Shown: one piece after another, positions 14,472 through 60,835 of the stretch
How positions within the stretch are numbered: the stretch's first letter is position 1
Layout: each line of letters starts with the position of its first letter
Assembly (NCBI GenBank): GCA_036250195.1
Contig: JAVHZZ010000003.1
Span: 293,233,065 to 293,297,064, forward strand
Length of the DNA stretch: 64,000 bases
Direction: 5' to 3'
DNA from: Mixophyes australis
Lineage: Eukaryota > Chordata > Amphibia > Anura > Limnodynastidae
Notes under the pieces: generated by a model
What the model was told of the DNA's origin: nothing
Database searches by the model: none
The model's input: only the letters and a program-made list of their open reading frames with translations
Made by a program: the position numbers and the translations under genes

Positions 14472-14472
14472 G

Positions 14473-14482
14473 GTCAGAGCAA
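14473..14482 (-). promoter_or_regulatory. Self-priming primer-binding site (element 1)
   Basis: Minus-strand TTGCTCTGAC, 2 nt inside the 5' LTR. It is the exact complement of GTCAGAGCAA at the predicted transcript start (14931-14922). Confidence 0.75.
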
Positions 14483-14484
14483 AC

Positions 14485-15668: not shown

Positions 15669-16468
15669 TAGTCACGTCCATAAATATTGGGACATCAACA
15701 CATTTCTAATAATTTGGGCTCTATACACCACAACAATGGATTTGAAATTAAACTAAAAAGATGTGCTTTAACTGCAGACTTTCAGCTTTAATTTGAGGGT
15801 ATTTACATCCAAATCAGGTGAACGGTGTAGGAATTACAACGATTTCTATATGTGCCTCCCACTTTTCAAGGTACCAAAAGTAATGGGACAATCGACTCAA
15901 AAGCTATTTCATGGACATGTGTGGGCTATTCCCTCATTATTTCATCATCAATTAAGCAGGTAAAAGGTCTGGAGTTGATTCTAGGTGTGACATATGCATG
16001 TGGAATCTGTTGCTGTCGACTCTCAATATGAGATCTGTTACAAATCACCAGTCCTCGCTCCAGTGCCACAATCCTCTCTCTCTTCCGGGTCGCGGCGGCA
16101 CTGTCACGTGACAGTCGGGGCTGGGAATTCAAACTTTCAAAACTACTAAAGACCTGCTCTGACGCCTTTGGCAGCGTCAGAGCAATTTCCTATTGTCACG
16201 GGCACTAGGAGTTGCTTACCCGAGTTTCACCAGATGTAACTCTGCTAGAGAGGCGTGGTTATGGCACACACCTCAAAGCAGGCAGGTGAATGATTGGAGC
16301 GACACAACAGCAGGAGAGTAGAGATAGAGATGAGATGAGATGAGGAAGTCAGCGACTTGCAGCTATGGTTAGAGGAAAGTCAGCGACTTGGAGTAGTAAA
16401 CTGGAGGCTGAAGATAATCTAGACACGAGGACTGGACGTGGATAGGTGATGGTAGGTAGAGGAGGAGT

Positions 16469-16738
16469 CAGTGGTCTGCGTACAGCAAGTTGTACCACTG
16501 TAGTGATGGTAGGAATAGTACTGGTGCAGGTAGGTAGCAGGGTAGTCGGTGGTCTGCGTTCAGCAAGTTGTACCACCGCTAAGGTGAGGAGTCTGGTCCA
16601 GGTGTAGGTAGGTAATAGGAGAGTCAGTGGTCTGCGTATAGCAAGTTGTACCACCGCTGTGATAGGAGGACTTGTCCAGGTGCGGGTAGGTAGCAGGGAA
16701 GTCAGTGGTCTGCGTGCAGCAAGTTGTACCACTGCTGT
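16469..16738 (-). repeat. Array of 32-nt hairpin modules in LTR leader
   Basis: Modules at 16469-16500, 16547-16578, 16625-16656 and about 16703-16734 each have a 7-bp stem enclosing a conserved loop that reads ACAACTTGC, then GCAG in the transcript direction. Stems read CAGTGGT/ACCACTG or CGGTGGT/ACCACCG. The third pairs only with one G-U wobble in the RNA. They lie downstream of the predicted start, so they would be in the RNA leader. The 5' LTR repeats them at about 22227-22500. Confidence 0.8.
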
Positions 16739-17220
16739 GAGAAGGAATGAGGACTTGTCCAGGTGCAGAAGAGTGAAGTTGAAAGGCAAACTGTGGCTGT
16801 ATGGAAACAGCGCGAGTAGAGCAATGTCTTGTGAGGCAGAGATGGAAGGCACAATGAATAGTCTGTATGGAGTAGATGCCTTGCAGGGAGGAGAAGCTGG
16901 TCACAGCAGATATGCACAATAACGCTAAGTAGTAGCGTGAGGAGATATCATAGCTTAAGTGAAAGCTTGTCCTAAATGAAGCAATGCAGTAACACAGTCT
17001 ATATGGGTACTTGTACCCTGTGCAGCAAACAACAATGGATACAACTGGTATGCGAGCAATAGGCAATAGTCAATAGTCAGTAGAGCATACCCAGTTGTGT
17101 AGATCCGGAATCAGCTGAGAAGTGAAGCGTTGTAGCGGTATGGGAACCGCCGCTGAGTTGAGCAGGGAGCAGCGTGGAAGCTGAAGCACAAGTAGAGCTG
17201 GAAGCAGTTTGGACACTGTA

Positions 17221-17475
17221 CAAACGAGTAGAGCTGGAAGCAGTTTGGAAACTGCACACAGGAGTAGAGCTGGAAGCAGCTTGGAAACTGCACACAGGAG
17301 TAGAGCTGGAAGCAGTTTGGAAACTGCACACAGGAGTAGAGCTGGAAGCAGTTTGGAAACTGCACACAGGAGTAGAGCTGGAAGCAGTTTGGAAACTGCA
17401 CACAGGAGTAGAGCTGGAAGCAGTTTGGAAACTGCACACAGGAGTAGAGCTGGAAGCAGTTTGGAAACTGCACAC
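17221..17475. repeat. 36-bp tandem repeat, about 7-8 copies (3' LTR)
   Basis: The unit starts GAGTAGAGCTGGAAGCAGTT and ends TGGAAACTGCACACAG. The arms CAGTTT and AAACTG make each unit a small inverted repeat. The 5' LTR has two fewer units. Confidence 0.9.
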
Positions 17476-17699
17476 ACCTATAGAAGTTCACTGGGAGTGA
17501 GACTTCAAGATCAGGCAACTACCTAAGGCTGCAGGTGCCTTAAGTAGGGAGGGGTGATTGATCCATCAATCACATTAGTGGTCAGGTGTAGTTGTTAAAG
17601 GGACCTGCGCATGCCCAGTGCGACAGGATGGCGGACGGCCGTGGTTCCACACAGGTGTGAGCGGGAAAGATGGAGAACCATGTACCAGAGTGGAGGCAC

Positions 17700-20600
17700 T
17701 CACACTCCGGTGAGTGACAGTACCCCCCTTTTAAAGGTGGGCACAGAACACTTGGAACCGGGTTTGCCCGGAAATTTTTGGTAGAATTTTTTAAGCAGGG
17801 CTGGAGCGTTGAGGTCCTCAGCGCGAATCCAGGAGCGTTCTTCTGGACCGAAGCCCTTCCAATGAACGAGGAATCAGAGAGTTCCTCGCGAAATTTTAGC
17901 ATCCAGGATCTAAGAGATCTCAAACTCCTCTTCTTGATGAATCTGTACTGGTTTAGGTACAGAAGAAAGAGCAGAAAAACGATTGATAACAAGAGGTTTG
18001 AGTAGAGAGACATGGAAGGCATTGGAGACCTGGAGGTTCTTTGGTAATAGTAGCTTGAAGCATACCGGATTTATGACTTGAGTGATCTTGTATGGTCCGA
18101 TGAAGCGTGGCGCAAACTTCATGGACGGAACCTTCAAGCGGATGTTTTTTGTAGAAAGCCATACACGGTCTCCAAGCTTGAGTGGTGGAATGGCTCACCT
18201 CTTTTTATCTGCGAAGAATTTGTATCTGGCTGATGCTTTCCTCAGGGATGATCTCACCTGAGTCCAGATGGTTTTAAAGTTTTGACAAAGTCTCTCCACT
18301 GCAGGGACTTGGGTGGGAGGGAGGGCAGGAAACTCTGGGAGAGACGGATGGTGACCGTAAACCACGAAAAAAGGAGTTTTTGTTGAAGACTCATGGTACA
18401 TGTTATTGTGGGCAAACTCAGCCCACGGCAGTAAATCTACCCAATTATCTTGATTGGCTGAGGAAAAGATTCTTATGAAGGTCTCGAGATCTTGATTGAC
18501 ACTTTCGGTCTGGCCGTTTGATTGGGGATGGTAAAACGATGATAGAGACAGTCGGATACCCAAGTTCTTACAAAGAGCTCGCCAGAATCTGGAGACGAAC
18601 TGCACTCCTCTATCGGACACAATCTCGGACGGACAGCCGTGAATTTGAAAAATCTCTTTAATAAAAGGGACAGCCAAGATAGAAGAAGATGGTAATCCGG
18701 TGAGAGGAACGAAGTGAACCATCTTGGAGAATCTATCCACCACTACCCAGATGGTATTACATCTCTTGCTAAGAGGAAGTTCGGTGACAAAGTACATACT
18801 TATGTGGGTCCAAGGTTTGGTAGGGATAGGTAGTGGTTGGAGCAATCCCGCTGGTGTTCTGCGGGAAGACTTAAATTGAGAGCAGATCTCACAAGCGGCC
18901 ACAAATTCTCTGACATCCTTTCTGATAGAAGGCCACCAATAACTCTGGGAAAGTATCTCAAAAGTCTTTCGTTCACCAGAATGTCCAGAGAAGCGTGAAG
19001 AATGGTACCATGACAATATTCTCTTGCGTAGAGATGGCGGAACAAGAGTTCTCCCAAACGGTAGCACATTGGTGGACGAAGTGGCCAAAGTCACACATTT
19101 GGGATCCAGTATAGGATGATCGGAAGAATCCAAGATGTCAGAAGGAGGAGCAAATGCCCGGGATAAAGCATCTGCTTCCCTGTTCTTTGCAGCAGGTTTG
19201 AACGTTATAATGAGTTCGAAGCGAGAAAAGAAAAGTGACCACCTCGCCTGTCGAGGGTTTAGACATTGGGCTGTTTGTAAATAGAGGAGATTTTTGTGGT
19301 CGGTGAAGATGGTTACCGGATAATGAGCCCCCTCCAGTAGATATCTCCACTCCTCCAATGCGACTTTTATTGCCAACAGTTCTCTGTCACCGATGGTGTA
19401 GTTCTTTTTCGCGGGTAGAAGACCCCGGGAGTAGAAGGCACAAGGATGGAATTTCTGTTGCTCAGATCTTTGGGAGAGAATAGCTCCTAGTCCGACATTG
19501 GAGGCGTCCATCTCGAGAAAGAAGGGAAGGTTTACGTCAGGCTGCCGAAGAACAGGGGCGGTAGAAAATGCTTCTTTAAGGCTTTGGAAAGCGTGAAGGG
19601 CCTCGGAGGACCAGTGTTTAGTATTGGCGCCCTTCTTGGTCAGGGCCACAATAGGAGAAGCAATAGATGAGAAGTTCAGGATAAAACGTCTGTAATAATT
19701 CGCAAACCCCAGGAAGCGTTGTATAGCCCTGAGGGTAGTTGGCTGTGGCCAAAGTAGAACGGCATTACCTTTGTCTGGGTCCATCTCCAGACCTACTCCG
19801 GACACGATGTATCCCAAGAATGGAATTTGGGATAATTCGAAGGAGCATTTTTCTAATTTGCTGAATAGGAGGTTCTTCCGCAGTCTGGAGAGAACTTCTG
19901 CCACATGTTGATGGTGGGAGACAAGATCTTGAGAGAAGATTAAAATGTCGTCCAGATAGACTACAACGCACACGTATAATAGGTCCCGGAAGATCTCGTT
20001 CACGAATCCTTGGAAGACAGCTGGGGCATTACACAGTCCAAAGGGCATAACTAGGTATTCGTAATGCCCATCCCTGGTGTTGAATGCTGTCTTCCATTCG
20101 TCGCCTGACTTGATCCGGATTAGGTTGTAAGCGCCACGGAGATGAAGTTTGGTAAAAATCCAAGCACCTTTTATATGATCAAAGAGTTCGGTGATAAGAG
20201 GAATCGGGTACCGATTTTTTACGGTTATGGCATTGAGCCCCCGATAATCAATGCAGGGTCTTAAGGTCCCATCTTTCTTTTTCACGAAAAAGAAGCCAGC
20301 TCCAGCGGGAGAGCTGGAAGGTCGAATGAATCCGCGATGAAGGTTGTCCTTGATATACTCTGACATAGACTGTGTCTCTGGTAGCGAGAGAGGGTATACA
20401 CGGCCCCTAGGAGGGTTTTTGCCAGGTAGTAAATCTATGGGACAATCCCATGCCCGATGAGGTGGCAGGCGTTCAGATTGCGCCTTATCGAACATGTCAG
20501 CGAACGGGGCATACTGTGGAGGAAGGCCCGGAGGACCAGGTGTTATAGATGATCTGTTGATTTTGAGTGGTACCACTCGGGTTAGGCATCTATGATGACA

Positions 20601-21047
20601 ATCCGGGCCCCAGGATGTGACTTGGGGAGTACTTTAATCAACTTGTGGTGAATGAAGCTGAAGCCATGGAAGGCCAAGAACGATGGGACTAGTAGTAGCA
20701 GGAAGGACCAGCAAAGAGATTTTCTCTCGGTGTAAGGCTCCAATTTGAAGGGTCAAAGGAGTCGTACAGTGGGTGATAAGTCCATTAATGATGTGAGAGC
20801 CGTCTATAGCGGTGACCGCTATGGAGGTTTTTAACGGGGCCAATGGTAGGGACCACTGGTTAACAAGAGCACTGGAGATAAAGTTGCCGGCAGCGCCGGA
20901 ATCCAGAAGTGCTTGAGAGATAAAAGATTTGGTGGCTGAGAAGATGGTAACATCAAATGCACACACTTTGGAATCCATAGAAGATGGAGAGGAGTCCAGG
21001 GACCCTAACCTTACCTCTCCAGAACTGGTTAGGGCCTGGCATTTCCC
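17700..21047 (-). pseudogene. Element 2 pol: protease to chromodomain, inactivated by nonsense codons
   Basis: Entered by -1 frameshift near 21047, the frame encodes protease [16 protein letters not shown] (near 20905), reverse transcriptase [31 protein letters not shown] (near 19965), RNase H LEMDASNVGLGAILSQ and TDHKNLLYL, integrase zinc region HSSRFSGHSGERKT with ACEICSQFK, catalytic FVTELPLSK, EIVSDRGVQF and HPQSNGQTESVNQDLE, and a chromodomain [15 protein letters not shown]. It stays in one frame for over 1,000 codons. Stops occur near 20634, at 18195, and twice at the chromodomain start (near 17930 and 17897), and the final stop at 17700 lies just inside the LTR. The long intact 793-codon core from reverse transcriptase through integrase suggests recent inactivation. 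Confidence 0.93.
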
Positions 21048-21957
21048 GACTTCTTAGGACATGAGTTCAGGCTGTGAGTAGGGTCAGCACAATAGATGCA
21101 GAGTCTATTTTGTATTCGTCGATCCCTCTCTCTAGATGTAACTTAGAACGTCCTACCTCCATGGGTTCCACTGGAGGGGGAAGGTGACAAACTTGAGGTG
21201 ATGGGCGAGTGAACCCCTTAGAGGTGCTTGTTTTTTCAGACTCCCTCTCACGGAATCTCATGTCTACCCTATGACATAGGGAAATTAGATCGTCCAAGGA
21301 GGAGGGTAACTCTTGTGTGGTCAGTGCGTCTTTGATCTTATCCGTCAGACCCTGCCAGAAGGCAGCTATCAGGGCCTCGGTGTTCCACTGTAGTTCGGAG
21401 GCGAGTATCCGAAACTGAATGACGTAATGGGCCACAGAGTGTGACCCTTGGCGTAGTCAGAGAATGCTGGAAGCCGCAGAGACAACGCGGCCAGGTTCAT
21501 CGAAAATTTTGCGGAACGTGGAAATGAAGAGTGCACTATCCTCCAATAGGAGGTCATTTCTCTCCCACAGAGGGGAGGCCCTCGCAAGAGCCTGTCCGGA
21601 AAGCAGAGAAATGAGGTAGGCAATCTTGGCACGGTGAGTGGCAAAATGGTGAGGTTGAAGCTCGAAATGGAGAGAGCACTGATTCAAAAAACCTCTACAC
21701 GTCTTGGGATCTCCATCATATTTTGAGGGAGTAGGCAGGTGTAGCGTGGAAGCAGTAGACACCTGGGATGGCACTGGGGAAAGAGAAGGCGCTTGAGGTT
21801 CAACAGTCGCTGAAACAGTTTGTAGAGGAACTCCTCGGGTGGCCAGAGTCTGGAAACACTGGAACAGATGTTGATGCCGAAAATCCTGTTGTTCTACCCG
21901 AGTGATCAGATGCTGCAGCATCTCCTTAGCTGTTGGTTCCAATCCTGGGTCTGTCAT
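21029..21957 (-). pseudogene. Element 2 gag with one stop and one frameshift
   Basis: It starts at ATG 21957, 13 nt inside the 5' LTR, as in element 1. The capsid region shows LHLPTPSKYDGDPKTCRGFL, CSLHFELQPHHFA and SLLSGQALARASPLWE, then SSLDDLISLCHRVDMRFRE. A TGA near 21456 replaces a conserved Arg codon in frame. A one-base shift near 21140 precedes the zinc knuckle CIYCADPTHSLNSC. The gag stop is TAA at 21031-21029. Its role is particle assembly and RNA binding. Domain order and spacing match element 1. Confidence 0.9.
21041..21047 (-). promoter_or_regulatory. Predicted -1 ribosomal frameshift site GGGAAAT (element 2)
   Basis: Gag codons TCG GGA AAT GCC overlap pol codons CGG GAA ATG shifted by one, giving GGG AAA TGC in pol. 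The heptamer lies 9 nt before the gag stop, exactly as in element 1, with only the last base changed. Confidence 0.82.
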
Positions 21958-21958
21958 G

Positions 21959-21968
21959 GCCTGATCTT
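21959..21968 (-). promoter_or_regulatory. Self-priming primer-binding site (element 2)
   Basis: Minus-strand AAGATCAGGC, 2 nt inside the 5' LTR. It is the exact complement of GCCTGATCTT at the predicted transcript start, 23210-23201. Confidence 0.78.
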
Positions 21969-21970
21969 AC

Positions 21971-23413
21971 TGTCACGGGCACTAGGAGTTGCTTACCCGA
22001 GTTTCACCAGATGTAACTCTGCTAGAGAGGCGGGGTTAGGGCACGCACCTCAAAGCAGGCAGATGAATGATTGGAGCGACACAACAGCAGGAGAGTAAAG
22101 ATAGTCTGAGGAAGTCAGCGACTTGCAGCTATGGTTAGAGGAAAGTCAGCGACTTGGAGTAGTAAACTGGAGGCTGAAGATAATGTAGACATGAGGAGTG
22201 GACGTGGATAGGTGATGGTAGGTAGAGGAGGAGTCAGTGGTCTGCGTACAGCAAGTTGTACCACTGTAGTGATGGGAAGAATAGTACTGGTGCAGGTAGG
22301 TAGCAGGGTAGTCGGTGGTCTGCGTTCAGCAAGTTGTACCACCGCTATGGTGAGGAGTCTGGTCCAGGTGTAGGTAGGTAATAGGAGAGTCAGTGGTCTG
22401 CGTATAGCAAGTTGTACCACCGCTGTGATAGGAGGACTTGTCCAGGTGCGGGTAGGTAGCAGGGAAGTCAGTGGTCTGCGTGCAGCAAGTTGTACCACTG
22501 CTGTGAGAAGGAATGAGGACTTGTCCAGGTGCAGAAGAGTGAAGTTGAAAGGCAAACTGTGGCTGTATGGAAACAGCGCGAGTAGAGCAATGTCTTGTGA
22601 GGCAGAGATGGAAGGCACAATGAATAGTCTGTATGGAGTAGATGCCTTGCAGGGAGGAGAAGCTGGTCACAGCAGATATGCACAATAACGCTAAGTAGGA
22701 GCGTGAGAAGATATCATAGCTTGAGTGAAAGCTTGTCCTAAATGAAGCAATGCAGTAACACAGTCTATATGGGTACTTGTACCCTGTGCAGCAAACAACA
22801 ATGGATACAACTGGTATGCGAGCAATAGGCAATAGTCAATAGTCAGTAGAGCATACCCAGTTGTGTAGATCCGGAATCAGCTGAGAAGTGAAGCGTTGTA
22901 GCGGTATGGGAACTGCCGCTGAGTTGAGCAGGGAGCAGCGTGGAAGCTGAAGCACGAGTAGAGCTGGAAGCAGTTTGGACACTGTACACATGAGTAGAGC
23001 TGGAAGCAGCTTGGAAACTGCACACAGGAGTAGAGCTGGAAGCAGTTTGGAAACTGCACACAGGAGTACAGCTGGAAGCAATTTGGAAACTGCACACAGG
23101 AGTAGAGCTGGAAGCAGTTTGGAAACTGCACACAGGAGTAGAGCTGGAAACAGTTTGGAAACTGCACACACCTATAGAAGTTCACTGGGAGTGAGACTTC
23201 AAGATCAGGCAACTACCTAAGGCTGCAGGTGCCTTAAGTAGGGAGGGGTGATTGATCCATCAATCACATTAGTGGTCCAGTGTAGTTGTTAAAGGGACCT
23301 GCGCATGCCCAGTGCGACAGGATGGCGGACGGCCGCGGTTCCACACAGGTGTGAGCGGGAAAGATGGAGAACCACGTACCAGAGTGGAGGCACTCACACT
23401 CCGGTGAGTGACA
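21971..23413 (-). repeat. Element 2 LTR, 5' copy
   Basis: 1443 bp with the same ends and modules as the 3' copy. It contains about six 36-bp units (22955-23170) and four hairpin modules. The promoter faces lower coordinates. Confidence 0.93.
23201..23240 (-). promoter_or_regulatory. Element 2 core promoter and transcript start
   Basis: A TATA-like TACTTAAGG starts at 23240, and the predicted first transcribed base is G at 23210, 31 nt from the start of the box. The same spacing is seen in element 1. Confidence 0.55.
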
Positions 23414-24812: not shown

Positions 24813-26138
24813 CTCCCCCTCATCCTCTTCTAATTCCAAAGTGGCATCCTCAATTTGTGTATCACCGGCTACACTCGGGCTGTTCAGGCAGACATCAGCA
24901 GAACTGCTAAAAGGGCCCTTCTTTATGGGTACATTATCAGAATGCTCATGATTAGACATACCACTGTTGGATTGACTCTCCACAGGGATTGGCCTTAGTG
25001 TTTTCTTGCAGCTCGGCTTTCACACATAACAGTAGTTGTGCACCACTTTTGGAATTCAAATTACTTGGTCTTGCAAATTCTATAGACAAGCCTGCTTGTC
25101 TTCCTCTTCATCAATGATTCTTAGCAATTGAGCACTCGTCTTTGGGTGTATATTACACCTAAACCTTATGACTGTAAATTAGTAAAAATACAGTTTAATC
25201 CCTGAGACATCCCACTGTTGGATGGACTCTCCACAGGGATTGGTGTCATTTCTGATTCAGAGCAAACATTATCCTCTAATGCCTTACTGTTATCTTGCAG
25301 CTCGGCTTTGACGCGTAACAGTAGTTGTGCACCACTTGTAGGCTCGGTAACATTTTTGGATCTGCCACTAACAGAGAAAGGCGAAGGCCTCATTTTCCCT
25401 TTGCCACTGCGTGTGTAGAATGGCATGTTGGCAATTTTTTTTTTATCGGCACTTAACTTCTGCTCAGTAACACTTCTCCCCCTCATCCTCTTCTAATTCC
25501 AAAGTGGCATCCTCAATTTGTGTATCACCGGCTACACTCGGGCTGTTCAGGCAGACATCAGCAGAACTGCTAAAAGGGCCCTTCTTTATGGGTACATTAT
25601 CAGAATGCTCACGATTAGACATACCACTGTTGGATTGACTCTCCACAGGGATTGGCCTTAGTGTTTTCTTGCAGCTCGGCTTTCACACATAACAGTAGTT
25701 GTGCACCACTTTTGGAATTCAAATTACTTGGTCTTGCAAATTCTATAGACAAGCCTGCTTGTCTTCCTCTTCATCAATGATTCTTAGCAATTGAGCACTC
25801 GTCTTTGGGTGTATATTACACCTAAACCTTATGACTGTAAATTAGTAAAAATACAGTTTAATCCCTGAGACATCCCACTGTTGGATGGACTCTCCACAGG
25901 GATTGGTGTCATTTCTGATTCAGAGCAAACATTATCCTCTAATGCCTTACTGTTATCTTGCAGCTCGGCTTTGACGCGTAACAGTAGTTGTGCACCACTT
26001 GTAGGCTCGGTAACATTTTTGGATCTGCCACTAACAGAGAAAGGCGAAGGCCTCATTTTCTCTTTGCCACTGCGTGTGTAGAATGGCATGTTGGCAATTT
26101 TTTTTTTATCGGCACTTAACTTCTGCTCTGTAACACTT
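24813..26138. repeat. 663-bp tandem duplication within the hAT
   Basis: 24813-25475 and 25476-26138 are nearly identical, for example at the word CTCCCCCTCATCC at both starts. The junction shares CACTTCT, which suggests duplication by strand slippage or unequal exchange. It duplicates part of the transposase first exon. Confidence 0.92.
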
Positions 26139-26311
26139 CTTTTTCGCTTCAACACAGTAAAAAAAAATTGTTTTGTTTTTTGGACTGATTTTGAAACACT
26201 GTGTAGTTTGACATCACCTTGCCCAGATGACGTACTGGGAACACTAACATCAGGACTGGTGACAGAACCTGGTTGCTCATTCTGCTCATATGTGGACTGC
26301 TTTGAATCCAT
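25829..26311 (-). pseudogene. hAT transposase N-terminal fragment
   Basis: A 160-codon frame starting MDSKQSTYEQNEQPGS. It has a Ser-rich acidic start, a basic patch (KRKRSVTEQKLSADKKK) and the segment ANMPFYTRSGKEKMRPSPF. That segment matches ANMPFTTRSGKERLRPWPV in the complete transposase at 37441-40449. The BED finger and catalytic core are deleted, so no enzyme can be made. A second, truncated copy of this frame at about 25166-25480 comes from the tandem duplication. Confidence 0.8.
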
Positions 26312-33535: not shown

Positions 33536-33851
33536 TAGGGATGTGCACCGGCGACTTTTGAGGTCTCGTGTTTTGTGTTTTGGATCCGGATTTTCGTTAT
33601 TTTTGAGGTTCGGATTTGTCTCGCAAAACACTTGACGAAAGGTCTCGGTTCGGATTTAAGGTATTGGATTCGGATTTTTTTTGAAAAAAACATAAAAAGT
33701 TTAAAAATCAAGTTTTTGGGCTTATTTTCACTCCTAGGCTATTATTAACCTCAATAACATTCAATAACAAGCATTTCCACTAATTTACAGTGTATTCTGA
33801 ACACCTCACAATATAGTTATTAGTCCAAAACGTTGCAACAAGGTATCTTTC

Positions 33852-35424
33852 TGGACTGCGTAGAGGAGTGGGTCACCACAATATATTAAAAACCCTGAAC
33901 TTTTATGATTCGCACCAATAATTGTACCTGGACTGCGTAGAGGAGTGGGTCACCACAATATATATTAAAAACCCTGAACTTTTATGAATCGCACCAATAA
34001 ATGTACCTGGACTGCGTAGAGGAGTGGGTCACCACAATATCTTAAAAACCCTGAACTTTTATGATTCGCACCAATAATTGTACCTGGACTGCGTAGAGGA
34101 GTGGGTCACCACAATATCTTAAAAACCCTGAACTTTTATGATTCGCACCAATAATTGTACCTGGACTGCGTAGAGGAGTGGGTCACCACAATATCTTAAA
34201 AACCCTGAACTTTTATGATTCGCACCAATAATTGTACCTGGACTGCGTAGAGGAGTGGGTCACCACAATATCTTAAAAACCCTGAACTTTTATGATTCGC
34301 ACCAATAATTGTACCTGGACTGCGTAGAGGAGTGGGTCACCACAATATCTTAAAAACCCTGAACTTTTATGATTCGCACCAATAATTGTACCTGGACTGC
34401 GTAGAGGAGTGGGTCACCACAATATCTTAAAAACCCTGAACTTTTATGATTCGCACCAATAATTGTACCTGGACTGCGTAGAGGAGTGGGTCACCACAAT
34501 ATCTTAAAAACCCTGAACTTTTATGATTCGCACCAATAATTGTACCTGGACTGCGTAGAGGAGTGGGTCACCACAATATCTTAAAAACCCTGAACTTTTA
34601 TGATTCGCACCAATAATTGTACCTGGACTGCGTAGAGGAGTGGGTCACCACAATATCTTAAAAACCCTGAACTTTTATGATTCGCACCAATAATTGTACC
34701 TGGACTGCGTAGAGGAGTGGGTCACCACAATATCTTAAAAACCCTGAACTTTTATGATTCGCACCAATAATTGTACCTGGACTGCGTAGAGGAGTGGGTC
34801 ACCACAATATCTTAAAAACCCTGAACTTTTATGATTCGCACCAATAATTGTACCTGGACTGCGTAGAGGAGTGGGTCACCACAATATCTTAAAAACCCTG
34901 AACTTTTATGATTCGCACCAATAATTGTACCTGGACTGCGTAGAGGAGTGGGTCACCACAATATCTTAAAAACCCTGAACTTTTATGATTCGCACCAATA
35001 ATTGTACCTGGACTGCGTAGAGGAGTGGGTCACCACAATATCTTAAAAACCCTGAACTTTTATGATTCGCACCAATAATTGTACCTGGACTGCGTAGAGG
35101 AGTGGGTCACCACAATATCTTAAAAACCCTGAACTTTTATGATTCGCACCAATAATTGTACCTGGACTGCGTAGAGGAGTGGGTCACCACAATATCTTAA
35201 AAACCCTGAACTTTTATGATTCGCACCAATAATTGTACCTGGACTGCGTAGAGGAGTGGGTCACCACAATATCTTAAAAACCCTGAACTTTTATGATTCG
35301 CACCAATAATTGTACCTGGACTGCGTAGAGGAGTGGGTCACCACAATATCTTAAAAACCCTGAACTTTTATGATTCGCACCAATAATTGTACCTGGACTG
35401 CGTAGAGGAGTGGGCACTGGGCAC
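33852..35424. repeat. 77-bp minisatellite, 21 units
   Basis: Units begin TGGACTGCGTAGAGGAGTGG at 33852, 33929 and 34008, then every 77 bp from 34085 to 35394. From 34085 on the units look identical by eye. Diverged relatives (GACTGCGTAGTGTGGTGGCC near 35637, GACTGCATAGTGGGGTGGCC near 35736, GACTGCACAGTGGAGTGTCC near 36868) show that the unit arose from older hAT 3' sequence. Confidence 0.95.
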
Positions 35425-46080: not shown

Positions 46081-46190
46081 GGCATGAGGAGACCCCACTG
46101 AGAGGGCATAGACTAGGACCTAAACTTAAAACTGCAAATGTCCACTTCCATAAAAATGCACCTCTCTTAGTAACTATTTCACTGGGGTTG

Positions 46191-47882
46191 TGTCACTCAC
46201 CGGAGTGTGAGTGCCTCCACTCTGGTACGTGGTTCTCCATCTTTCCCACTTACACCTGTGTTGAACCGCGGCCGTCCGCCATCCTGTCGCACTGTGCATG
46301 CGTAGGTCCCTTTAACAACTACACCTGACCACTAATGTGATTGATGGATCAATCACCTCACCCTACTTAAGGCACCTGCAGCCTTAGGTAGTGGCCTGAT
46401 CTTGGAGTCTCATTCCCAGTGATTCTCTATAGGTGTTCCTGTGAGCTACTCGTGTCTGCAGTTTCCAAGCTGCTTCCAGCTCTACTCGTGTCTGCAGTTT
46501 CCAAGCTGCTTCCAGCTCTACTCATCGGCGGTTCCCATACCCGCTTCAGCATTACTACTCAGCAGATCGTCTGCAGTTTCCAAACTGCTTCCTGCTCTAC
46601 TCACCGGCGGTTCCCATACCCGCTACAGCGTGTCTACTCAGCTGATCGTCTGCAGTTTCCAAGCTGCTTCCTTCTCTACTCACCGGCGGTTCCCATACCC
46701 GCTACAGCGTGTCTACTCAGCTGATCATCTGCAGTTTCCAAGCTGCTTCCTGCTCTACTCACCGGCGGTTCCCATACCCGCTACAGCTTGTCTACTCAGC
46801 TGATCGCTTCTTCAGCTTCCCAGCTGATTCCTGCTCTACTTGGTATGCATAACCACTATTGACTATTATTGTTTACTTGCATACCTATTGAACTATACGT
46901 GACTACTGCACTAAGGTACAGTTACCTATGATAGACTGTCTATGCTACATTGCCTGTTTACCCCGACAAGCTTCTCACTCAGCTGCGGTATGCTCTCATC
47001 ATATTGACTTTGTTGTTACTTGCATATCCGCGCTGACCCGCTTCTCCACGTTGCAGAGCCAGCTACTATATTGACAGACTATTCATTGTACTTACCCACT
47101 TGTGTTGTACAAAACTCCTTTCTACTCGCGCTGTTTCCACACAGCTACAGTTTGCCATTTCCACACCACTCTCCTGCACCTGGACAAGTCCTCCTTCCTC
47201 TTCACAGCAGTGGTACAACTAGCTACATGCAGACCACTGACTTCCCTGCTACCTACCAGCACCTGGACAAGTCCTCCTATCACAGCAGTGGTACAACTTG
47301 CTATACGCAGACCACTGACTCTCCTGTTACCTACCTACACCTGGACATTCCTCACAGCGGTGGTACAACTTGCTATACGCAGACCACCGACTACACCGCT
47401 ACCTACCTGCACCAGTACTACTCTTCCCATCACAGCGGTGGTACAACTTGCTATACGCAGACCACCGACTACACCGCTACCTACCTGCACCAGTACTACT
47501 CTTCCCATCACAGCGGTGGTACAACTTGCTATACGCAGACCACCGACTACCCTACTACCTACCTGCACCAGGACAACCTCATCACTACAGTGGTACAACT
47601 TGCTGTACGCAGACCACTGACTCCTCCACGAGCTACCTTCACCTACTCACGTCCTCTCATCTCGTCTGAAGCTATATCGCTTCTTCTCTACAGTTCCAAG
47701 TCGCTGACCTTCCACCACCAACAGCTGCAAGTCATTGACTTCATAAGACATTCTCTACTTTCCTGCTGTTATCATCATTCCAATCATTCACCTAACTGCC
47801 CTGAGGTCCGTGGTCAACACCGCCCCTCTGTCAGTTATAACATCAGGTGAAACTCTGGTATAAACTCCTAGTGCCCGTGACA
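46191..47882 (+). repeat. Chromoviral solo LTR, element 2 family
   Basis: 1692 bp, ends TGTCACTC and CCCGTGACA, with a perfect GGTTG duplication at 46186-46190 and 47883-47887. The predicted start GGCCTGATCTTGG lies near 46393, after a CTACTTAAGG box. Six hairpin modules lie at about 47206-47620, three with the CGGTGGT/ACCACCG stem. Long open frames across it are chance products of repeat periodicity. Confidence 0.94.
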
Positions 47883-47887
47883 GGTTG

Positions 47888-48530
47888 ATGAAACCAAAGG
47901 GACGGGTGTATGACAAAGAGGGCAGCTTTGCGCTCCCCGCGAAGTACGCTTTTCACAGTGTGTATATATATATATATTTATATAGCACAAATACATGGCA
48001 GTTTAATTAAATATACAAAACCTAGACTAGAGGGCACAGACAGAAGGAGGGGTCTGTCCAGTCCATCTAGTCTGTCAGGGCCCCTGTACAGCTGCACTGA
48101 CTCTACCTCTCTGATGGCAGCACTAAGTGCAAGACCCGTATTGTACAATAGGATAGCCCACTATACCTCCTTATGTGTATTAACGTGAACTGAATTAAAA
48201 CAAAATGGTTTGAACTGACAACACGGTGACATAATAGTCATGGAGAAAGACACCCATCAGCTTCGGTGTCTGACATATTCAAATAGCTGTGGGTCAATAT
48301 CCAGCTCAGTACAGTGAAGACTGTTTAGATGTTTTATATGCGGCGCCTCTAATCTTACATGATTGTTAAGAGCCAGTGGGATGAATCTAGCAGTTTTACT
48401 ACAGCTAGATGGCATCATAGAGGTTTTCACAGAAGCACAATAACATAGATGATCAAACAAAGTGACCCATTGGAGTGAAACTTGCAGAAAATAAATCTCT
48501 ACATAAATGTATCATCCCTAAAATACTAAA
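47888..48530. other. Unassigned sequence with a short (TA)n
   Basis: A short TATATATATATATTTATATA tract near 47963. No terminal repeats or convincing coding frames were seen. Confidence 0.4.
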
Positions 48531-49151
48531 AAAGACTGTTTCTTTGTTGTATGCCAAACAAAAGATAATTCAGTGACATCTTGGATACTTTCAATAAGGA
48601 AAGATTAAATATGGGCTGCGAGCTGAAGCCATTGTGGAATTTGTTTTATAAATTTGTTATTTAAATTAGGGATTAAAGCAAAACTTTTTTTGATAAGAGA
48701 ACAGAGATTAATAAACCAGGAAGACCTGGAAGAGGGAAAGCTCTTCTTCCTGAAGGTACCAAACCAAGTTGCAATAAATATTTATAACTGTAGATTAACT
48801 GTGGGAAATATGTCAGCCAAAATGCTGGGCAATCCAGAAATGGGAGTTTATTTATTTCGACATATTGATGTTGCACTGAATTTTGCTCATCACAAAAATA
48901 GGGTTTTAAACAAATTGATCATTATTAAATTGCTGTGTGGCAAATTTAAGTAAATTAACACAAGTTCTAAATTAAAAGTAGCCCTGACACCAATCCCAAA
49001 TTTTGACAGTCATGTATTGAAAAAGGTACCATTATGGAATGAACCCTGTGATGAGCAGGTTGTAAATTCCTTGATATATGTGTATGAATATGACAGCAAC
49101 TTTAAGCCTGAGAAAACACCAAGACAATGTCTTCCGATTGCTTCAGTATAT

Positions 49152-49466
49152 CATACTTACCTACTTTCTTCAGCTCTCTTCCGGGAGCCAGCCAGTGGAG
49201 GGGGGCGTGAGGGGGCGGGGCGGCCAAAATCGCGTCATTTCGGCCCCGCCCCCTGTGACGACATGACGCAAATTGCGTCATTTGACAGCGGGGGGCGGGG
49301 CTAAACGCCGCGATTCATCGGGAATCGCGGCGTTTGGGATCTAATTCTGCCCACTTCACTAGGAAGTGGGCAGAATTCGGGAGATTGCCACACTCGCCCG
49401 GGAGTCCGGGAGACTCTCGCAAAATGCGGGAGTCTCCCGGACATTCCGGGAGAGTTGGCAAGTATG
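49152..49466. mobile_element. hAT-type MITE, copy B, inside the TEX15-like pseudogene
   Basis: Same family as 44696-44985 but inverted. The ends are CATACTTACCTAC and GTTGGCAAGTATG, with a perfect 8-bp duplication CAGTATAT (49144-49151, 49467-49474). Its insertion interrupts the pseudogene reading frame. Confidence 0.92.
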
Positions 49467-50042
49467 CAGTATATGCAACTTTTGTAGGCCAAAAAAACTG
49501 TTAACATATCAGGACCAGTACACCTCACATCCAAGTCCATTTTTATCAGGAAATGAAATATTTGCAAGCTGTACTGTGGCATAAAGAATAGTGAAAGGCA
49601 AAGATGTCACTAATATCTTTAAAAGTGTTCATTCAACATTGCTGAAAGCTTCCAGAAATGGCTCTGAAAATGAGTCACTGTTCCTCAAATAAATACATTG
49701 CACCAAAACAATTAGAGAATCTAATGTCTAATGTATTGTGATTACATCAAAATCATCAACTCTTAAAAAGGAGTTACCAGGAGCTTTACTATCAGCTGAC
49801 CAGTATCAAACGGGTCATAAGAAACAAAACAGTCTTCTTTGTGAAAATAAGGTGTCTAGTAACAAACAAATGGACCCCAACGAAGAAAGATTTTTGATGA
49901 GTGAAAATAGTATCAATAAAACATCCCTGTACTTCTTTTGAGGAAATGTGTGTTTCTGATGACACTTTCATGTCCAGAGAATAGTGAATGAAGACATTAA
50001 AGAAATATTCATTATGCTTGTCTTTAATTAAAAAGGAGAGAG

Positions 50043-51645
50043 TGTCACTCACCCGACTGTGAGTGCTACTTCTAAGGTAGCTAGGAACCGTGTCCGTCCA
50101 TTATAATGAGGTACTGCGCATGTGCAGTCCCTTCTAACCTTCAGTTCTGTTCCTTTAACTTAATTGGCTGATCAGGCAACACTCCCTATATTAAGCACCT
50201 GTGGTCAATACCACGTTGCCTGATCTTGGAGTCTCATTCCTCATGAGTCTCTGAAGGTGTTCCAGTGCCTCCTCGTGTGTTCAGCTTATGCTGATTCCTG
50301 TTTGCCGTTTGTGGTTTCCAGACCACTTCTACTCCTCGTGTTCCTAGTGACTTCAGCAGCTGATTCCTATCCGCTGCCTCCGTATATCTACAGTTACAGA
50401 TTACTGCTAACTCTCCTGTGGTTCATCGTGACTCCAGCAGCTGATTCCTATCCGCTGCCTCCGTGTGTCTAACAAGTTACAGATCTCTCCAACTCTCCTG
50501 TGTTACATCGCTACTGTTCCAGCTGATTCCTGTTAGCTACTTCAGCGTGTCTACAGAGTCCTGCTCGTCTCAGCGCTCCAGTCTGCATTCTACCTGCCGT
50601 CAGCTGACCCGCTGCCTACTGCTTCTACAGTGTGTCCATTTGTGTCAACTTGCCTGTTAGCATCGAGTCTACGCTCCTCGGCTTCCAGCTCTGCTACATC
50701 GCTTGAGCTCTCCCGTGGTCTTCTGCTGTTCAATTCGATATACTACTGCTTCCTGAGTATTTTGTCGTCCTTGCTAACCTACCTACAGTGCGCTGCACCT
50801 ACCTGCCGCTTCCATTCTGCAAGGACTTCTCATCTCGTCAGTTCCCTGCCGCTCAGGTATCCCTGCAGCTATCTCTAACAGCCTGCTCATCTGAACCACG
50901 GTATGCATACTTCTCATTGACTGTGCTGGTGTATTGCATATTCATTTGGACTGAGTTGTTCTCCTCCGGAGTTTCCATCCTCTGAGACTATTGCTATTAT
51001 TGACTGTGTTTCCTTTTGCTGGACTATTCTAGTGACTTTGTTTATCTGTGCAGTGCTGTTCATTCATTATTATTATTGTGTGCAGTTCAACGTGGGATCA
51101 AGTTCAGTGTACCCGTGTAGACTCTGCATTGCATTTATCTCCTCGTGTCCTTCCTCACATATATATTCAGTGGTACAACTTGCTAGAGGCAGACCACTGA
51201 TTCCTGTTTCCCTGTGTCACCAGTTGCATATATCCTCTCACATAAGCAGTGGTACAACTTGCTACACGCAGACCACTGACTTCCCCGTTACCTTCACCTG
51301 GATTCCATTCCTTCACTACAGACAGCGGTACAACTTGCTATACGCAGACCGCTGACTTCCACCTCCTTATTACTCCTGGACATTCCATCTCACTATAGCA
51401 GTGGTACAACTTGCCGTGCGCAGACCACTGACTACCCTCACGTGTCCTTGTCTATCCAGATCCTCGTGTTCAGTTACCTATTGTTTACCAGTGCTGCTAG
51501 TCATAGACTTTCTGAGCATTCTCTAACCATCTGCTGTTTCCAGTTCCATTATCACCCTGCCACCAGAGTATCATATACCAACTCTACTGCTCTGATAAGA
51601 CCATCAGCGGGTGATACTGGGTAAAGACTCCTAGTGCCCGTGACC
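50043..51645 (+). repeat. Chromoviral solo LTR, divergent subfamily, in the TEX15-like pseudogene
   Basis: It starts TGTCACTCACCC and ends GTGCCCGTGACC (last base mutated), with a perfect GAGAG duplication at 50038-50042 and 51646-51650. A TATATTAAG box is followed by GCCTGATCTTGG near 50218. Four hairpin modules lie at about 51168-51432, one (51323-51354) with the CAGCGGT/ACCGCTG stem. Imperfect tandem units (CAGCTGATTCCTATCCGCTG) occur near 50356-50460. Confidence 0.93.
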
Positions 51646-52170
51646 GAGAGATGCAACGGTTCAATCTTTGAAAAAGTTAAGTAATGAGGAAAAAGCAGGA
51701 CTTTCTAGAAAGTTGTGCACATATGACAAATACTACAGAATGTTTGTAAATCAATTAGAATTTACAAAAGAAGGAAAGCAGGCTAAATGGCTTAATCTCC
51801 TGATAAAAGTCCACCAATTTGTCCTCAAAGTTTTTTCTGTGTCTGTTAGTACGTCATACTGTACTACTTAAGGCAATGAATATGGTCACATTCACAAAAG
51901 TCAATTGATTTCTTTATGGACTGATAACAGACAAGATTAAAGTAGTCAGTAAATCCCTCAAGAAAATAAACAAAAAAAATCAAAGCTCTACAAGGGCAAA
52001 GAATAGTTTAAGAGACAATTACAATGGCAAACCGACATTTCATAAAAACAAGTCTATGGCTAAAAGTGCTGTAGTGACTAGCAAAGCAAAAGTTCTAAAA
52101 ACTGGCCAGAGCTTTGTTACCCATGTTAATTGCAAAACAGATTCTCCTGACATCGGTAAAGGTAAGGTAT

Positions 52171-53965
52171 TGTCACAGGCACTAGGAGTCTTTACCCAGG
52201 GATCACCAGGTGATAGGCTTACCAGAGCAGTATAGGTGGTAATATGGTACTCTGGTAGCAGGGTGATCACGGAACAGGAAATAGCAGATGATGAGATGCT
52301 CAGGAAAGTCTATGACTAGCAGCACTGGTAATATGGAGGTAATAATACACGAGGAACTGTATGGACAAAGGACACGTGAAGGTAGTCAGTGGTCTGCGGT
52401 AGCAAGTTGTACCACTGCTATAGTGAGGAGGAATGTCCAACAGAAACGAGGAGGTGATGAGAGTCAGCGGTCTGCGGATAGCAAGTTGTACCGCTGTCAG
52501 AGTGAAGGAATGGAATCCAAGTGGAGGTATCCGGGGAGTCAGTGGTCTGCGTTAGCAAGTTGTACCACTGCACCACTGCTATGTGAGAGGATACTGGAAC
52601 AGGTGATACAGGAAACAGGAATCAGTGGTCTGCCTCTAGCAAGTTGTACCACTGAATATATATGTGAGGAGGGGCACGGGGAGAGACTGCAACACAGGAT
52701 ATATACGGGCACCTTAAACTCGATCCACAGTAATATGCACAATATATAAATGACTGAACAGCACTGCAATAATAGAAAGTCTCTTGAGGTAATCCGGCAC
52801 AAGATAACACAGTCAATGATGGCAATAGACTCAGCGGATAGCAAACTCCAGAGGAGAACCAACACAGTCCAGCAAGATATGCAATACACCAGCACAGTCA
52901 ATGAGAAGTATGCATACCGTGGTTCAGAAGCAGGCAGTCAGACAGGAGTGCAGAGATACCTGAACGGCAGGAGGCCGGCAGGATGCGAAGTCCCTGGATG
53001 GGTGGAGCAGTGGTCTAGTAGGTGCAGCGCACAGGTAAGTAGACCAGCAGGGAACCAAATACACAGGAATCAGTAGAGCGTGGAACTGGACTCCTGGAGG
53101 ACCCTGGAGAATGGCGATGGTCTAGCAGAGGGGTAAATAGTGAGACACGAATCCAATGCTGACAGGCGGGTAGAGACCAGCGGGAACACAGGAAAGCGTG
53201 GAGAGCGGATCAGCAGTAGATGGACGAGTAGAGCTGAGGAGTAGCAGCAGCAGGTCTCTGCGGACACAAGGAGGTAGCCAATAGCAACCAGCAGGTGCAG
53301 CAACGATGGGACACGGGAGAGCAGAGTTGAGCTGGAACTGTTGATCACGGAGAGTAGCGGATAGCAATAGTAGTGGCAGTCTCGAGGAAACACGGGAGAG
53401 TTGAGATGAGCTGAAGACTGAAGCGCACAGAGGCAGCGGATAGGAATCAGCTAACAGTCACGATGATGCACAGGTGAGTGGATGTGGAGTGAAGACTGTA
53501 GTGCACGGAGGCAGCGGATAGGAATCAGCTAACAGTCACGATGATGCACAGGTGAGTGGATGTGGAGTGAAGACTGTAGTGCACGGAAGCAGCGGACAGG
53601 AATCAGCTAACAGTCACGATGATACACAGGAGCGTAGAAGTGGTATGGGAACCACAGTAGTAGAAGTGGTTTGGAAACCACAGAGGTAGAAGTGGTTTGG
53701 AAACCACAGGAATCAGCAGCGCTGAATACACGAGGAAACACAGGAACACCTTCAGAGACTCATGGGGAATGAGACTCCAAGATCAGGCAAAGTGGTATTG
53801 ACCACAGGTGCTTAATATAGGGAGTGTTGCCTGATCTGCCAATTAAGTTAAAGGAACATACACTGAAGGTTTAGAAAGGGCTGCGCATGCGCAGTCCCTC
53901 AGGATGGAGGACGGCCACGGTTCCTAAATGTCCGGGAAGAAGCACTCACAGTCCGGTGAGTGACA
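52171..53965 (-). repeat. Chromoviral solo LTR, divergent subfamily, in the TEX15-like pseudogene
   Basis: 1795 bp, ends TGTCACAGG and GAGTGACA, with a perfect GGTAT duplication at 52166-52170 and 53966-53970. Minus-strand GCCTGATCTTGG marks the predicted start near 53788. Four hairpin modules span 52388-52655, including CAGCGGT/ACCGCTG at 52465-52496. Tandem units around 53430-53640 (AGGAATCAGCTAACAGTCAC) vary in copy number. Confidence 0.94.
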
Positions 53966-54058
53966 GGTATGTTATGCTAAAATATACCCCATCAGTAGAA
54001 ATTGACCTATAGATGTGTAGAGTCAGAGGACAACTCTGTCAAAAAACATACTGGTCCT

Positions 54059-54300
54059 GATTCTTCATCATCATCATCATCATCATCATCATTTATTTAT
54101 ATAGCGCCTCTAATTCCGCAGCGCTGTACAAAAAACTCACTCACATCAGTCCCTGCCCCATTGAGGCTTAAAGTCTAAATTCCCTAACACACACACACAC
54201 ACACACAGACTAGGGTCAATTTTTGTTAGCAGCTAATTAACCTACCAGTATGTTTTTGGAGTGTGGGAGGAAACCCATGCAAACATGTGGATAACATACA
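54059..54300 (+). repeat. Common vertebrate dispersed repeat with ATC and CA microsatellites
   Basis: (ATC)n is followed by TTTATTTATATAGCGCCTCT, then AATTCCGCAGCGCTGTACA, a (CA)n at 54189-54208, and TTTTTGGAGTGTGGGAGGAA. This string recurs widely in fish and amphibian genomes as an interspersed repeat, possibly a LINE or SINE tail. The exact family is uncertain. Confidence 0.6.
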
Positions 54301-59292: not shown

Positions 59293-60835
59293 TGTAACGA
59301 TGTATAGTTTAAATGTAATAATGTGCAATGTATATGGGTATAAAGTGCTTATGTATGAAATAAATGTAGAGTACTTATCTTGTTCCTCAGTCCAGAGAGG
59401 GCTGCAGAGGCCTCCGCCTCCTGGGGGTCCCAGGAAGATAAGTCCCTAGTTGGAGCTCAAAGATCTACTTCAACTAGTGACAGGGCAGAGACTGCTGTCC
59501 CGGGATCTGGCTGCTCTCCCCTGGTACTATTTTTGGCTAGGGAGCAGAGCCAGACCCCGGAGCAGGGTCCCTGGAATTAACTTAGGGCGGGAGATTTAAA
59601 AGATAAATCTCTTGCCCCAGACAGGGAGGCACCAGGGGAGGTGAGTGGGCTGAGCCCCCCTCTCCCTGGCAACTCATGGACAGGCGGGAAGTATACTCCC
59701 CCCTGCTATTAGCAACAATGTTAAACGGTGTTAAACTCTCTTTGTTGAGTCACGTGCAGGCTGCATGAATCCACCCAGATTGGCTAAAGAGACAGGAGAA
59801 CGTTTTACCTTCTGCTATGACTATTCTCCAGATGTGTATAAAAACACAGAACTGTTTTGTATTAAAAGTTGTTCTTCTTGTTTCATCTGACCTGCATCCT
59901 GGCACCTTCAACCAGGGTGAGCAAATAAACATCACTTGCTTCAAAGACCTGCTTAGAAACTTCTCTATCCCTGTGACCTACAGATTAGACCCAACTCTAA
60001 TCCTGTCACAGATACTGGATTACTACTACTAATCTTGATTAGTACTGTCTTACCTGAGGTGCGGAGTCTAACGATCTCCCCGGTGTTCACCAAGAACCGC
60101 CGCAAGGCGGGGTGGACTTCGCTGCCAGGAGTCACAGGTCGCGGTCCTCAGGTTCGCCCCAAGATGTAGTGCAGCGGAGTGGAGCAGAAGATGCGGAGTC
60201 AGTCAAGCCGAGTCGGTACACAGGAATGGAGGCAGGCAGAATCAGCAGGCAACTCGGAGTCAATCAAGTCAGCGTCGGTACACGGGTCACAAGAATAGAG
60301 GGATGGTAAGCAAGCCGGGTCGGTACACAGGGGTTGGAGAGCCAGGATAGTCTAACAGGCAGAGATCAGCACACAGGAAGACACAGGAGACTGGAAGACA
60401 CAGCAATCCACGAAGCATAGGAGCCAGGAACAGGTAAGTGTTGCTCTGACACTCAGCGAGTGTCAGAGTGAGGTTTTTATACTGACAGGGATTCAAAATC
60501 CCCGCCTCTGGGTTGCGGTCATGTGACCGCCGAACCCGGAAGTGCGGCATCCGGATGGAGCGGCGGGGGGCAGGTAAGTTCGTAACAAATCCATTCCCGT
60601 CTGTTCTGAGATTTGGACCCAGCATTCCAGTACTACCACTCTGCCCACTACCCAGAAGCTCTGGCCAGTGTGATAGGCCAGGGGGGATTCATCCACACCA
60701 ACCTTGATTCATAGGAAGAGGTCAGGAATTCCAGCCTAGGTGAACCAGTAATGGGATACACTAGCAGCGTAAGTTACCTAGAAGAATCCCGGTTCTGGAT
60801 GCCGGTAAGGAGCCCAGTGGTGGCAGCATTTTTTA
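59293..60835 (+). repeat. Possible retroviral-type LTR split by a solo LTR
   Basis: TGTAACGATG at 59293 could be the start. A TATAAAAA box (59836), AATAAA (59926) and the later AGTGGTGGCAGCATTTT (60819), which resembles a primer-site junction, fit an LTR-leader layout. The chromoviral solo LTR 60004-60587 sits inside it at AATCC. No gag or pol follows. Limits are tentative. Confidence 0.38.
60004..60587 (-). repeat. Chromoviral solo LTR, element 1 family
   Basis: 584 bp, starts TGTCACAGATACTGG and ends TTCGTAACA, with a perfect AATCC duplication at 59999-60003 and 60588-60592. It aligns along its length with the element 1 LTR (TTACCTGAGGTGCGGAGTCT; CGCCGCAAGGCGGGGTGG) and keeps TTGCTCTGACACTCAGCGAG at the predicted start. 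Confidence 0.94.

What the first reader, a model, noticed from the sequence alone, without database searches (positions are those of the whole stretch)
46191..53965. A 32-nt hairpin module repeated in chromoviral LTRs, with compensatory stem changes
About 22 copies occur in five LTRs (two in element 2 and solo LTRs at 46191, 50043 and 52171). Each is 32 nt with a 7-bp stem around a nearly constant loop (ACAACTTGC, then GCAG). The stem changes on both sides together: CAGTGGT/ACCACTG (for example 16469-16500), CGGTGGT/ACCACCG (16547-16578, 47358-47389) and CAGCGGT/ACCGCTG (51323-51354, 52465-52496). Where one side alone has changed in element 2 (16625-16656), the RNA-sense strand still pairs by G-U. 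Sequence outside the modules differs much more between subfamilies. Modules are spaced about 70-85 nt apart and lie downstream of the predicted start, so they would be in the RNA leader. Paired changes in independent subfamilies indicate selection on RNA structure. The role is unknown: packaging, dimerisation, translation entry and protein binding are all possible.
Basis: partly seen in the sequence, partly recalled or inferred. Interest (0 to 1): 0.9.

Follow-up and report, generated by a model that had tools for sequence, protein, structure and literature searches.

The report
Tandem RNA hairpins in retrotransposon leaders
A family of retrotransposons carries in each long terminal repeat a row of near-identical 32-base hairpins that lie in the long untranslated start of its RNA, where they probably act as repeated docking sites for a protein, perhaps the element's own coat protein.

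Summary
In detail: 22 sense-oriented modules in five LTRs, at the stated places. The strict core occurs at least 80,702 times in the window's 3.1-Gb genome (reversed control 0). The RNA folds as a 7-bp stem, an almost invariant 5-nt bulge (ACAAC), a 4-bp inner stem and a variable loop. Modules are 83-93% alike between LTR families, spacers 54-79%. The element is a self-priming chromovirus: 10 nt just below a TATA-like box match the primer-binding site after the LTR, with one compensated change. The 1.1-1.9 kb leader between them avoids AUG on the sense strand (26 of 26 leaders), and holds a conserved 5-codon uORF inside a second hairpin and a third hairpin type. The covariation claim is weaker than first stated: paired changes trace to about three events, two at CpG sites, and elements with unpaired modules have transposed. 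A maintained leader-RNA hairpin is well supported (about 0.75). Function is inferred: repeated Gag sites for genome selection is my best guess (about 0.35). Folding controls give no support for the array being needed to join self-primer and PBS. New variant of a known kind.

The parts
16194..17719 (-). 3' LTR of element 2 (family II)
   Evidence: TSD ATAGG
21971..23413 (-). 5' LTR of element 2 (family II)
   Evidence: TSD ATAGG
46191..47882 (+). solo LTR (family II)
   Evidence: TSD GGTTG
50043..51645 (+). solo LTR (family I)
   Evidence: TSD GAGAG
52171..53965 (-). solo LTR (family I)
   Evidence: TSD ATACC
16469..16734 (-). C-hairpin array: 16703-16734, 16625-16656 (pair 2 G-U), 16547-16578 (pair 2 G-C), 16469-16500
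22235..22500 (-). C-hairpin array: 22469-22500, 22391-22422 (pair 2 G-U), 22313-22344 (pair 2 G-C), 22235-22266
47208..47619 (+). C-hairpin array: 47208-47239, 47286-47317, 47358-47389, 47436-47467, 47514-47545 (last three pair 2 G-C), 47588-47619
51168..51430 (+). C-hairpin array: 51168-51199, 51247-51278, 51323-51354 (pair 4 C-G), 51399-51430
52387..52654 (-). C-hairpin array: 52623-52654, 52540-52570, 52465-52496 (pair 4 C-G), 52387-52417
46363..46372 (+). TATA-like box CTACTTAAGG (in family I CTATATTAAG, e.g. 50186-50195)
   Evidence: role inferred
46394..46403 (+). self-primer GCCTGATCTT, predicted 5' end of the RNA
50218..50227 (+). self-primer GCCTGATCTT
53779..53788 (-). self-primer GCCTGATCTT
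23201..23210 (-). self-primer GCCTGATCTT in 5' LTR of element 2
17507..17516 (-). the same site in the 3' LTR of element 2
21958..21968 (-). primer-binding site AAGATCAGGCC, directly before the gag ATG
46458..46746 (+). A hairpins (stem + UUCCAN loop): 46458-46473, 46494-46509, 46573-46588, 46652-46667, 46731-46746
50311..50326 (+). A hairpin with another stem (GTGGT/ACCAC)
46845..46862 (+). 5-codon uORF whose ATG lies in the 5' arm of B hairpin
46990..47007 (+). second 5-codon uORF in B hairpin
50903..50920 (+). 5-codon uORF in B hairpin
52898..52915 (-). 5-codon uORF in B hairpin
22843..22854 (-). 3-codon uORF at the same site in element 2
17720..21970 (-). internal region of element 2: gag with CCHC knuckle, protease, RT, RNase H, integrase; frames broken

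Best explanation
The module is a bulged RNA hairpin ('C') repeated in tandem (1 to 8 copies in the LTR loci read) in the 5' leader of a self-priming chromovirus. Shown from sequence: the elements are Ty3/Gypsy with a self-primer and PBS; the leader between these is 1.1-1.9 kb, avoids AUG on the sense strand in families I and II, and holds three hairpin types; C keeps its stem, bulge ACAAC and inner stem across families while apical loop and spacers drift. Inferred: the fixed bulge with the pairs around it is a binding surface, the array gives multivalency, and the partner is most likely the element's own Gag, whose CCHC knuckle would select the full RNA for packaging. C is stable enough to be a signal (about -10 to -12 kcal/mol) yet weak enough for scanning ribosomes, so one leader can serve as message and as packaged genome. 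Array redundancy would explain why single broken modules are tolerated.
For: RNA level: modules lie 0.7-1.7 kb below the self-primer in sense orientation. In 26 of 26 leaders (of 37 LTR copies examined; one, L015, badly bounded) no shuffle of 200 had as few sense ATG; antisense counts are near expectation. The avoidance runs through the C array: 27 ATG seen, 292 expected below the uORF (25 leaders). Structure: folds; bulge positions 94-100% identical in 99 distinct modules, apical loop 48-85%; modules 0.83-0.93, spacers 0.54-0.79 identical between families. Hits changed on both sides of a pair: 100 of the first 100 listed are C-G at pair 4 (14,236 in all), 98 of 100 are G-C at pair 2 (884), the one pair-5 hit is A-T. 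One-sided at pair 2: G-U 887, A-C 110. Other hairpin type: 12 of 127 distinct contexts fully paired, 2.0 expected. CCHC in gag.
Against: No RNA, binding or packaging data. Paired changes reduce to about three events; pairs 2 and 4 are CpG transitions. At pair 4 one-sided U-G and C-A are near equal (509, 371); by my reading of the first 100 of each list, 7 and 9 sets of same-strand hits lie 2.8-8.6 kb apart, as in two LTRs of one element, so wobble gives no clear advantage there. The G-U excess at pair 2 is largely one inherited subfamily. Family III (L023, L024) has a fixed C-C at pair 1, a broken inner stem in some copies and weak AUG avoidance (8 seen, 13 expected; 13 and 11 of 200 shuffles as low). 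L056 has one module. Leader fold scores are only modestly better than shuffles: z -0.8 to -3.0 sense, -1.5 to +1.1 antisense, 13 leader runs finished (3 and 10) before two time-outs. Pairs 1, 3, 6, 7 were not searched genome-wide for paired changes.
Confidence: 0.4

Rival explanations
1. The hairpins are RNA elements for a host protein or for translation: with the short uORFs they tune scanning, reinitiation or export of a very long leader, rather than packaging.
For: Sense-only AUG avoidance shows the leader is probably scanned; a 5-codon uORF at a fixed site in 23 of 25 leaders, and many 3-codon uORFs at +25 in family I, its ATG in the arm of hairpin B.
Against: Shunting past the array would not call for AUG avoidance inside it, yet avoidance runs through the array; element 2 has a 3-codon uORF at that site; nothing links C itself to translation.
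Confidence: 0.25
2. The hairpin arrays fold the leader so that the 5' self-primer meets the primer-binding site more than 1 kb away.
For: Self-primer and PBS match in the 5' LTRs; unconstrained minimum-energy folds pair 9-10 of 10 primer nucleotides with the PBS in 7 of 10 elements, against 23 of 70 folds with the leader interior shuffled.
Against: With only the C array shuffled the pairing stayed in 26 of 50 folds, so the array itself is not needed; folds of this length are unreliable; element 1 self-primes with a 605-bp LTR in which no C module was found.
Confidence: 0.1
3. A DNA-level dyad: binding sites for a dimeric DNA-binding protein, or an enhancer, in the LTR.
For: Any perfect hairpin is also a dyad in DNA; LTRs hold regulatory sites.
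Against: Asymmetric bulge kept as strictly as the stem; position below the RNA start; G-U state fixed in a subfamily and 887 against 110; two other hairpin types in the same leader. The wobble argument fails at pair 4.
Confidence: 0.1
4. No selection on pairing: tandem duplication, amplification of few master copies, CpG transitions and template-switch correction of imperfect palindromes give the pattern.
For: About three events only; transitions, two at CpG; arrays change copy number; adjacent modules are tandem repeats; one-sided changes are transmitted.
Against: Does not explain why bulge, inner stem and outer stem stay 83-93% alike while spacers fall to 54-79%, nor the unrelated stems around the UUCCAN loop. 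A long-lasting G-U and C-C state argues against fast correction.
Confidence: 0.15

Closest known systems
Tf1/Sushi-group chromoviruses, V-clade (Amn-ichi, Amn-ni, Amn-san, Sushi-ichi)
   Same: Ty3/Gypsy domains, chromodomain and Tf2-1-like SH3 domain (element 1), self-priming PBS. PMC6317226 (passages) lists the V-clade and says self-priming is likely common to the group; PMC4131045 (passages) calls Amn-san the most abundant LTR elements in Silurana.
   Different: I saw no long hairpin-array leader described for them in these passages; clade placement by tree was not tested.
Tf1 and Tj1 self-priming of fission yeasts
   Same: PBS complementary to the 5' end of the mRNA (PMC4600332, passages).
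   Different: Here the leader between the two partners is 1.1-1.9 kb. Tf1 details beyond the passages are recalled.
Retroviral leader packaging stem-loops (for example MMTV, PMC8096270, seen as search listing with the start of its abstract only)
   Same: Structured 5' leader of an RNA that is both message and genome.
   Different: Here one 32-nt hairpin is repeated in tandem inside the LTR; Gag binding is untested.
Pararetroviral leaders with short uORFs and ribosome shunting (PMC5902531, passages)
   Same: Long structured leader with very short uORFs.
   Different: No single large stem after the uORF was shown here, and AUG avoidance continues below it, which argues against a bypass.

Membership tests
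Tf1/Sushi-group chromovirus | Ty3/Gypsy order gag-PR-RT-RNaseH-IN | tested here: met
   Pfam hits in five pieces of element 2; the Retrotrans_gag hit is just under its cut-off (23.8 against 24.1), DUF4939 above
Tf1/Sushi-group chromovirus | chromodomain at the integrase C terminus | tested here: met
   element 1: Chromo PF00385 E 3e-10, SH3_Tf2-1 E 1.4e-20; in element 2 a similar piece is visible by eye and was not scanned
Tf1/Sushi-group chromovirus | PBS complementary to the 5' end of its own RNA | tested here: met
   11 of 37 LTR copies have the junction with PBS: 8 exact 10-nt matches of the common form, 1 exact with a paired change (L024), 2 with mismatches (L027, L033); chance of 10 nt anywhere in the LTR 369 of 20,000 shuffles; also element 1. 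RNA 5' end not mapped.
Tf1/Sushi-group chromovirus | placement in the clade by RT/IN tree | not tested
   no tree was built
Retroviral-type packaging signal | conserved structure in the leader of the genomic RNA | tested here: met
   position from predicted start only
Retroviral-type packaging signal | binds Gag/NC and is needed for packaging | not testable with these tools
   Gag has a CCHC knuckle; no binding data
Known Rfam RNA family | match at the gathering score | tested here: not met
   46100-54100: 7 hits up to E 5, all below gathering score and none on a module

The most novel reading that the evidence does not exclude
The whole leader of these elements is a modular string of three hairpin types, each with its own conserved unpaired part (UUCCAN loop, uORF hairpin, ACAAC bulge) and exchangeable stems, and the C array is a multivalent Gag-docking platform that switches one RNA between translation (scanning, tiny uORF) and packaging with self-priming.
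Probability: 0.3. Interest if true: 0.75.

Novelty: new variant of a known kind. Interest (0 to 1): 0.5.

Why it matters
How vertebrate-type chromoviruses pick their RNA for particles is, to my knowledge, not known (recalled, not searched in full). A 32-nt signal present over 80,000 times in one genome, in transcribable LTRs, offers a simple binding and probing test. If a host protein or Gag binds it, the many solo LTRs would also spread that binding site through host transcripts.

Tried and rejected
Collections: strict pattern 0 in viral contigs and 4 single hits in bacterial MAGs, taken as chance. Rfam: nothing. Coding function of the arrays: open frames cross them, but spacings such as 74, 76 and 79 nt are not multiples of three; rejected. 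Ribosome shunting past the array: AUG avoidance continues through it. Array needed for self-priming fold: not supported. Whole-leader folding energies: weak, two scripts timed out. Loops of type A do not help at all 4-mers: no 4-mer with 40 or more occurrences had a stem in over 25% of them; the directed test is. A class of elements with LTRs about 3.7-4.3 kb apart looked non-autonomous; only L037/L038 was examined and it keeps the first 1.45 kb and last 0.37 kb of the internal region in the parts held; not pursued. Literature: eight answered searches; no listed title or abstract start described hairpin arrays in chromovirus LTRs, which is no proof of absence.
Full report
1. The observation. 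The module is far from local: GGTACAACTTGCN{3,8}GCAGACC has 80,702 exact matches in the 3.126-Gb genome, a lower bound, and the reversed control none. IMG/VR has none; four bacterial MAG contigs have one each.

2. The hairpin. Six window modules folded in the sense as RNA give -10.1 to -12.3 kcal/mol; five take the form stem 7 bp, bulge ACAAC, inner stem UUGC/GCAG, 5-nt loop, and one (51168-51199) another inner pairing. In 304 modules from 77 LTR loci (112 distinct; the last 20 loci were chosen partly for one-sided stem changes), 99 distinct ones with a 5-nt loop show bulge positions 94-100% identical, inner stem 95-100%, apical loop 48-85%. Modules of different LTRs are 0.83-0.93 identical, the 40-nt spacers 0.54-0.79, shuffled spacers 0.47-0.59, in ten comparisons.

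3. Paired changes. In the window: pair 2 A-U to G-C (family II) and pair 4 U-A to C-G (family I), with one G-U at pair 2. In fetched arrays these states keep to fixed module positions: pair 4 C-G at module 3 of family I; pair 2 G-C at module 3 (3 to 5 in longer arrays) and G-U at module 2 of family II. Families named I-IV are my own labels. Family III (L023, L024) has pair 5 as A-U in some copies beside G-C in others, a G-U at pair 2, and a fixed C-C at pair 1. So there are about three independent paired changes. Genome-wide, sites changed on both sides are nearly always complementary: 100 of the first 100 listed at pair 4 (14,236), 98 of 100 at pair 2 (884), 1 of 1 at pair 5. Most copies descend from few masters, so these numbers are not events. 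Pairs 2 and 4 are CpG sites in their G-C form. One-sided changes: pair 2 G-U 887 against A-C 110, mainly one inherited subfamily; pair 4 U-G 509 against C-A 371. Same-strand hits 2.8-8.6 kb apart, as in two LTRs of one element, number 7 sets (U-G) and 9 sets (C-A) in the first 100 of each list by my reading, so elements with an unpaired module have transposed. L065 has C-A in four of its eight modules. In the window alignment the structure beats all 500 shuffles on three of five measures, not on the count of pairs changed on both sides (64 of 500) nor on pair types (273 of 500), and a +3 slide nearly equals its covariation score.

4. Where it lies. Directly after the 5' LTR of element 2 comes GTAAGATCAGGCC and the gag ATG. 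AAGATCAGGC is the complement of GCCTGATCTT, which lies about 30 nt below a TATA-like box in the LTR. Of 37 LTR copies examined, 11 show such a junction: 8 exact matches of the common form, one exact match with a paired change (L024, GCCTGTTCTT with AAGAACAGGC), two with mismatches (L027, L033). This is the self-priming arrangement described for Tf1/Sushi elements (passages of PMC6317226 and PMC4600332). Element 1 of the window, with short LTRs without C modules, has it too, and carries Chromo and Tf2-1-like SH3 domains. So the modules are in the leader, 0.7-1.7 kb below the predicted 5' end.

5. The leader. In 26 of 26 leaders bounded by the script (families I and II; L015 badly bounded and dropped later) sense ATG numbers 2-17 against 12.7-37.5 expected, and no shuffle of 200 was as low; on the antisense strand the share of shuffles as low was 0.02 to 0.84. 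In 25 leaders 21 ATG against 189 expected lie between +40 and the uORF, 27 against 292 below it. In two leaders of family III avoidance is weak: 8 against 13. In 23 of 25 leaders a 5-codon uORF begins at TATGC, within the 5' arm of a hairpin in most folds; the two LTRs of element 2 have a 3-codon one there. Family I also has a 3-codon uORF at +25. A third hairpin type has the loop UUCCAN and stems GCAGT/ACTGC, GTGGT/ACCAC, GCTGT/ACAGC, TCAGC/GCTGA: 12 of 127 distinct contexts fully paired, 2.0 expected when partners are dealt anew. Global folding energies are modestly better than shuffles on the sense strand (z -0.8 to -3.0) and not on the antisense (-1.5 to +1.1), for the 13 leader runs that finished.

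6. Mechanism. That the module exists as RNA hairpin under constraint rests on points 2-5 (about 0.75). What it binds is inferred. Gag of both elements has a CCHC knuckle. A tandem hairpin with a strict bulge and free loop looks like a multivalent protein site; Gag is the simplest partner (about 0.35). Translation control or a host protein is the main rival (0.25). Help in self-priming: unconstrained folds join primer and PBS in 7 of 10 elements, in 23 of 70 folds with shuffled interiors and in 26 of 50 with only the C array shuffled, so the array is not needed for it in silico.

7. Known or new. Self-priming chromoviruses and structured leaders are known. I saw no account of a tandem hairpin array or of the conserved tiny uORF in such LTRs in the listings of eight searches and the passages of five papers. 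I call it a new variant of a known kind.

Noticed in passing
window 9647-15089 (-): Element 1: another self-priming chromovirus with 605-bp LTRs 99% identical; its self-primer lies in the 3' arm of an 11-bp hairpin just below TATAAAAA. A solo LTR 86% alike lies at 60003-60587.
   Followed up: partly
window 33851-35414: Tandem array of a 77-bp unit, 20 copies, 99% matches.
   Followed up: no
window 23484-23882: Tandem array of a 47-bp unit, 8.6 copies, starting about 70 bp beyond the 5' LTR of element 2.
   Followed up: no
window 24812-26140: Direct head-to-tail duplication of about 666 bp, 99.55% identical.
   Followed up: no
L050 1517-1546 (-): Next to a normal module lies one that seems to pair in a new register (outer CAGTG/CACTG, 5-nt bulge, inner ACTTG/CAAGT), keeping the same topology (pairing read by eye).
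   Followed up: partly
G000:C1:9472332-9497721 and C1:262880249-262902177: Hits at regular steps of about 6.35 kb and 5.45 kb, as if several copies of an element share LTRs in tandem.
   Followed up: no
G000 lists: Neighbouring LTRs fall in two spacing classes, about 5.9-6.3 kb and 3.7-4.3 kb; the short class may be internally deleted and moved in trans. L037/L038 keep gag start and 3' end.
   Followed up: partly
window 46191-46215, 50043-50066: The LTR begins with an inverted repeat CACTCAC..GTGAGTG.
   Followed up: no
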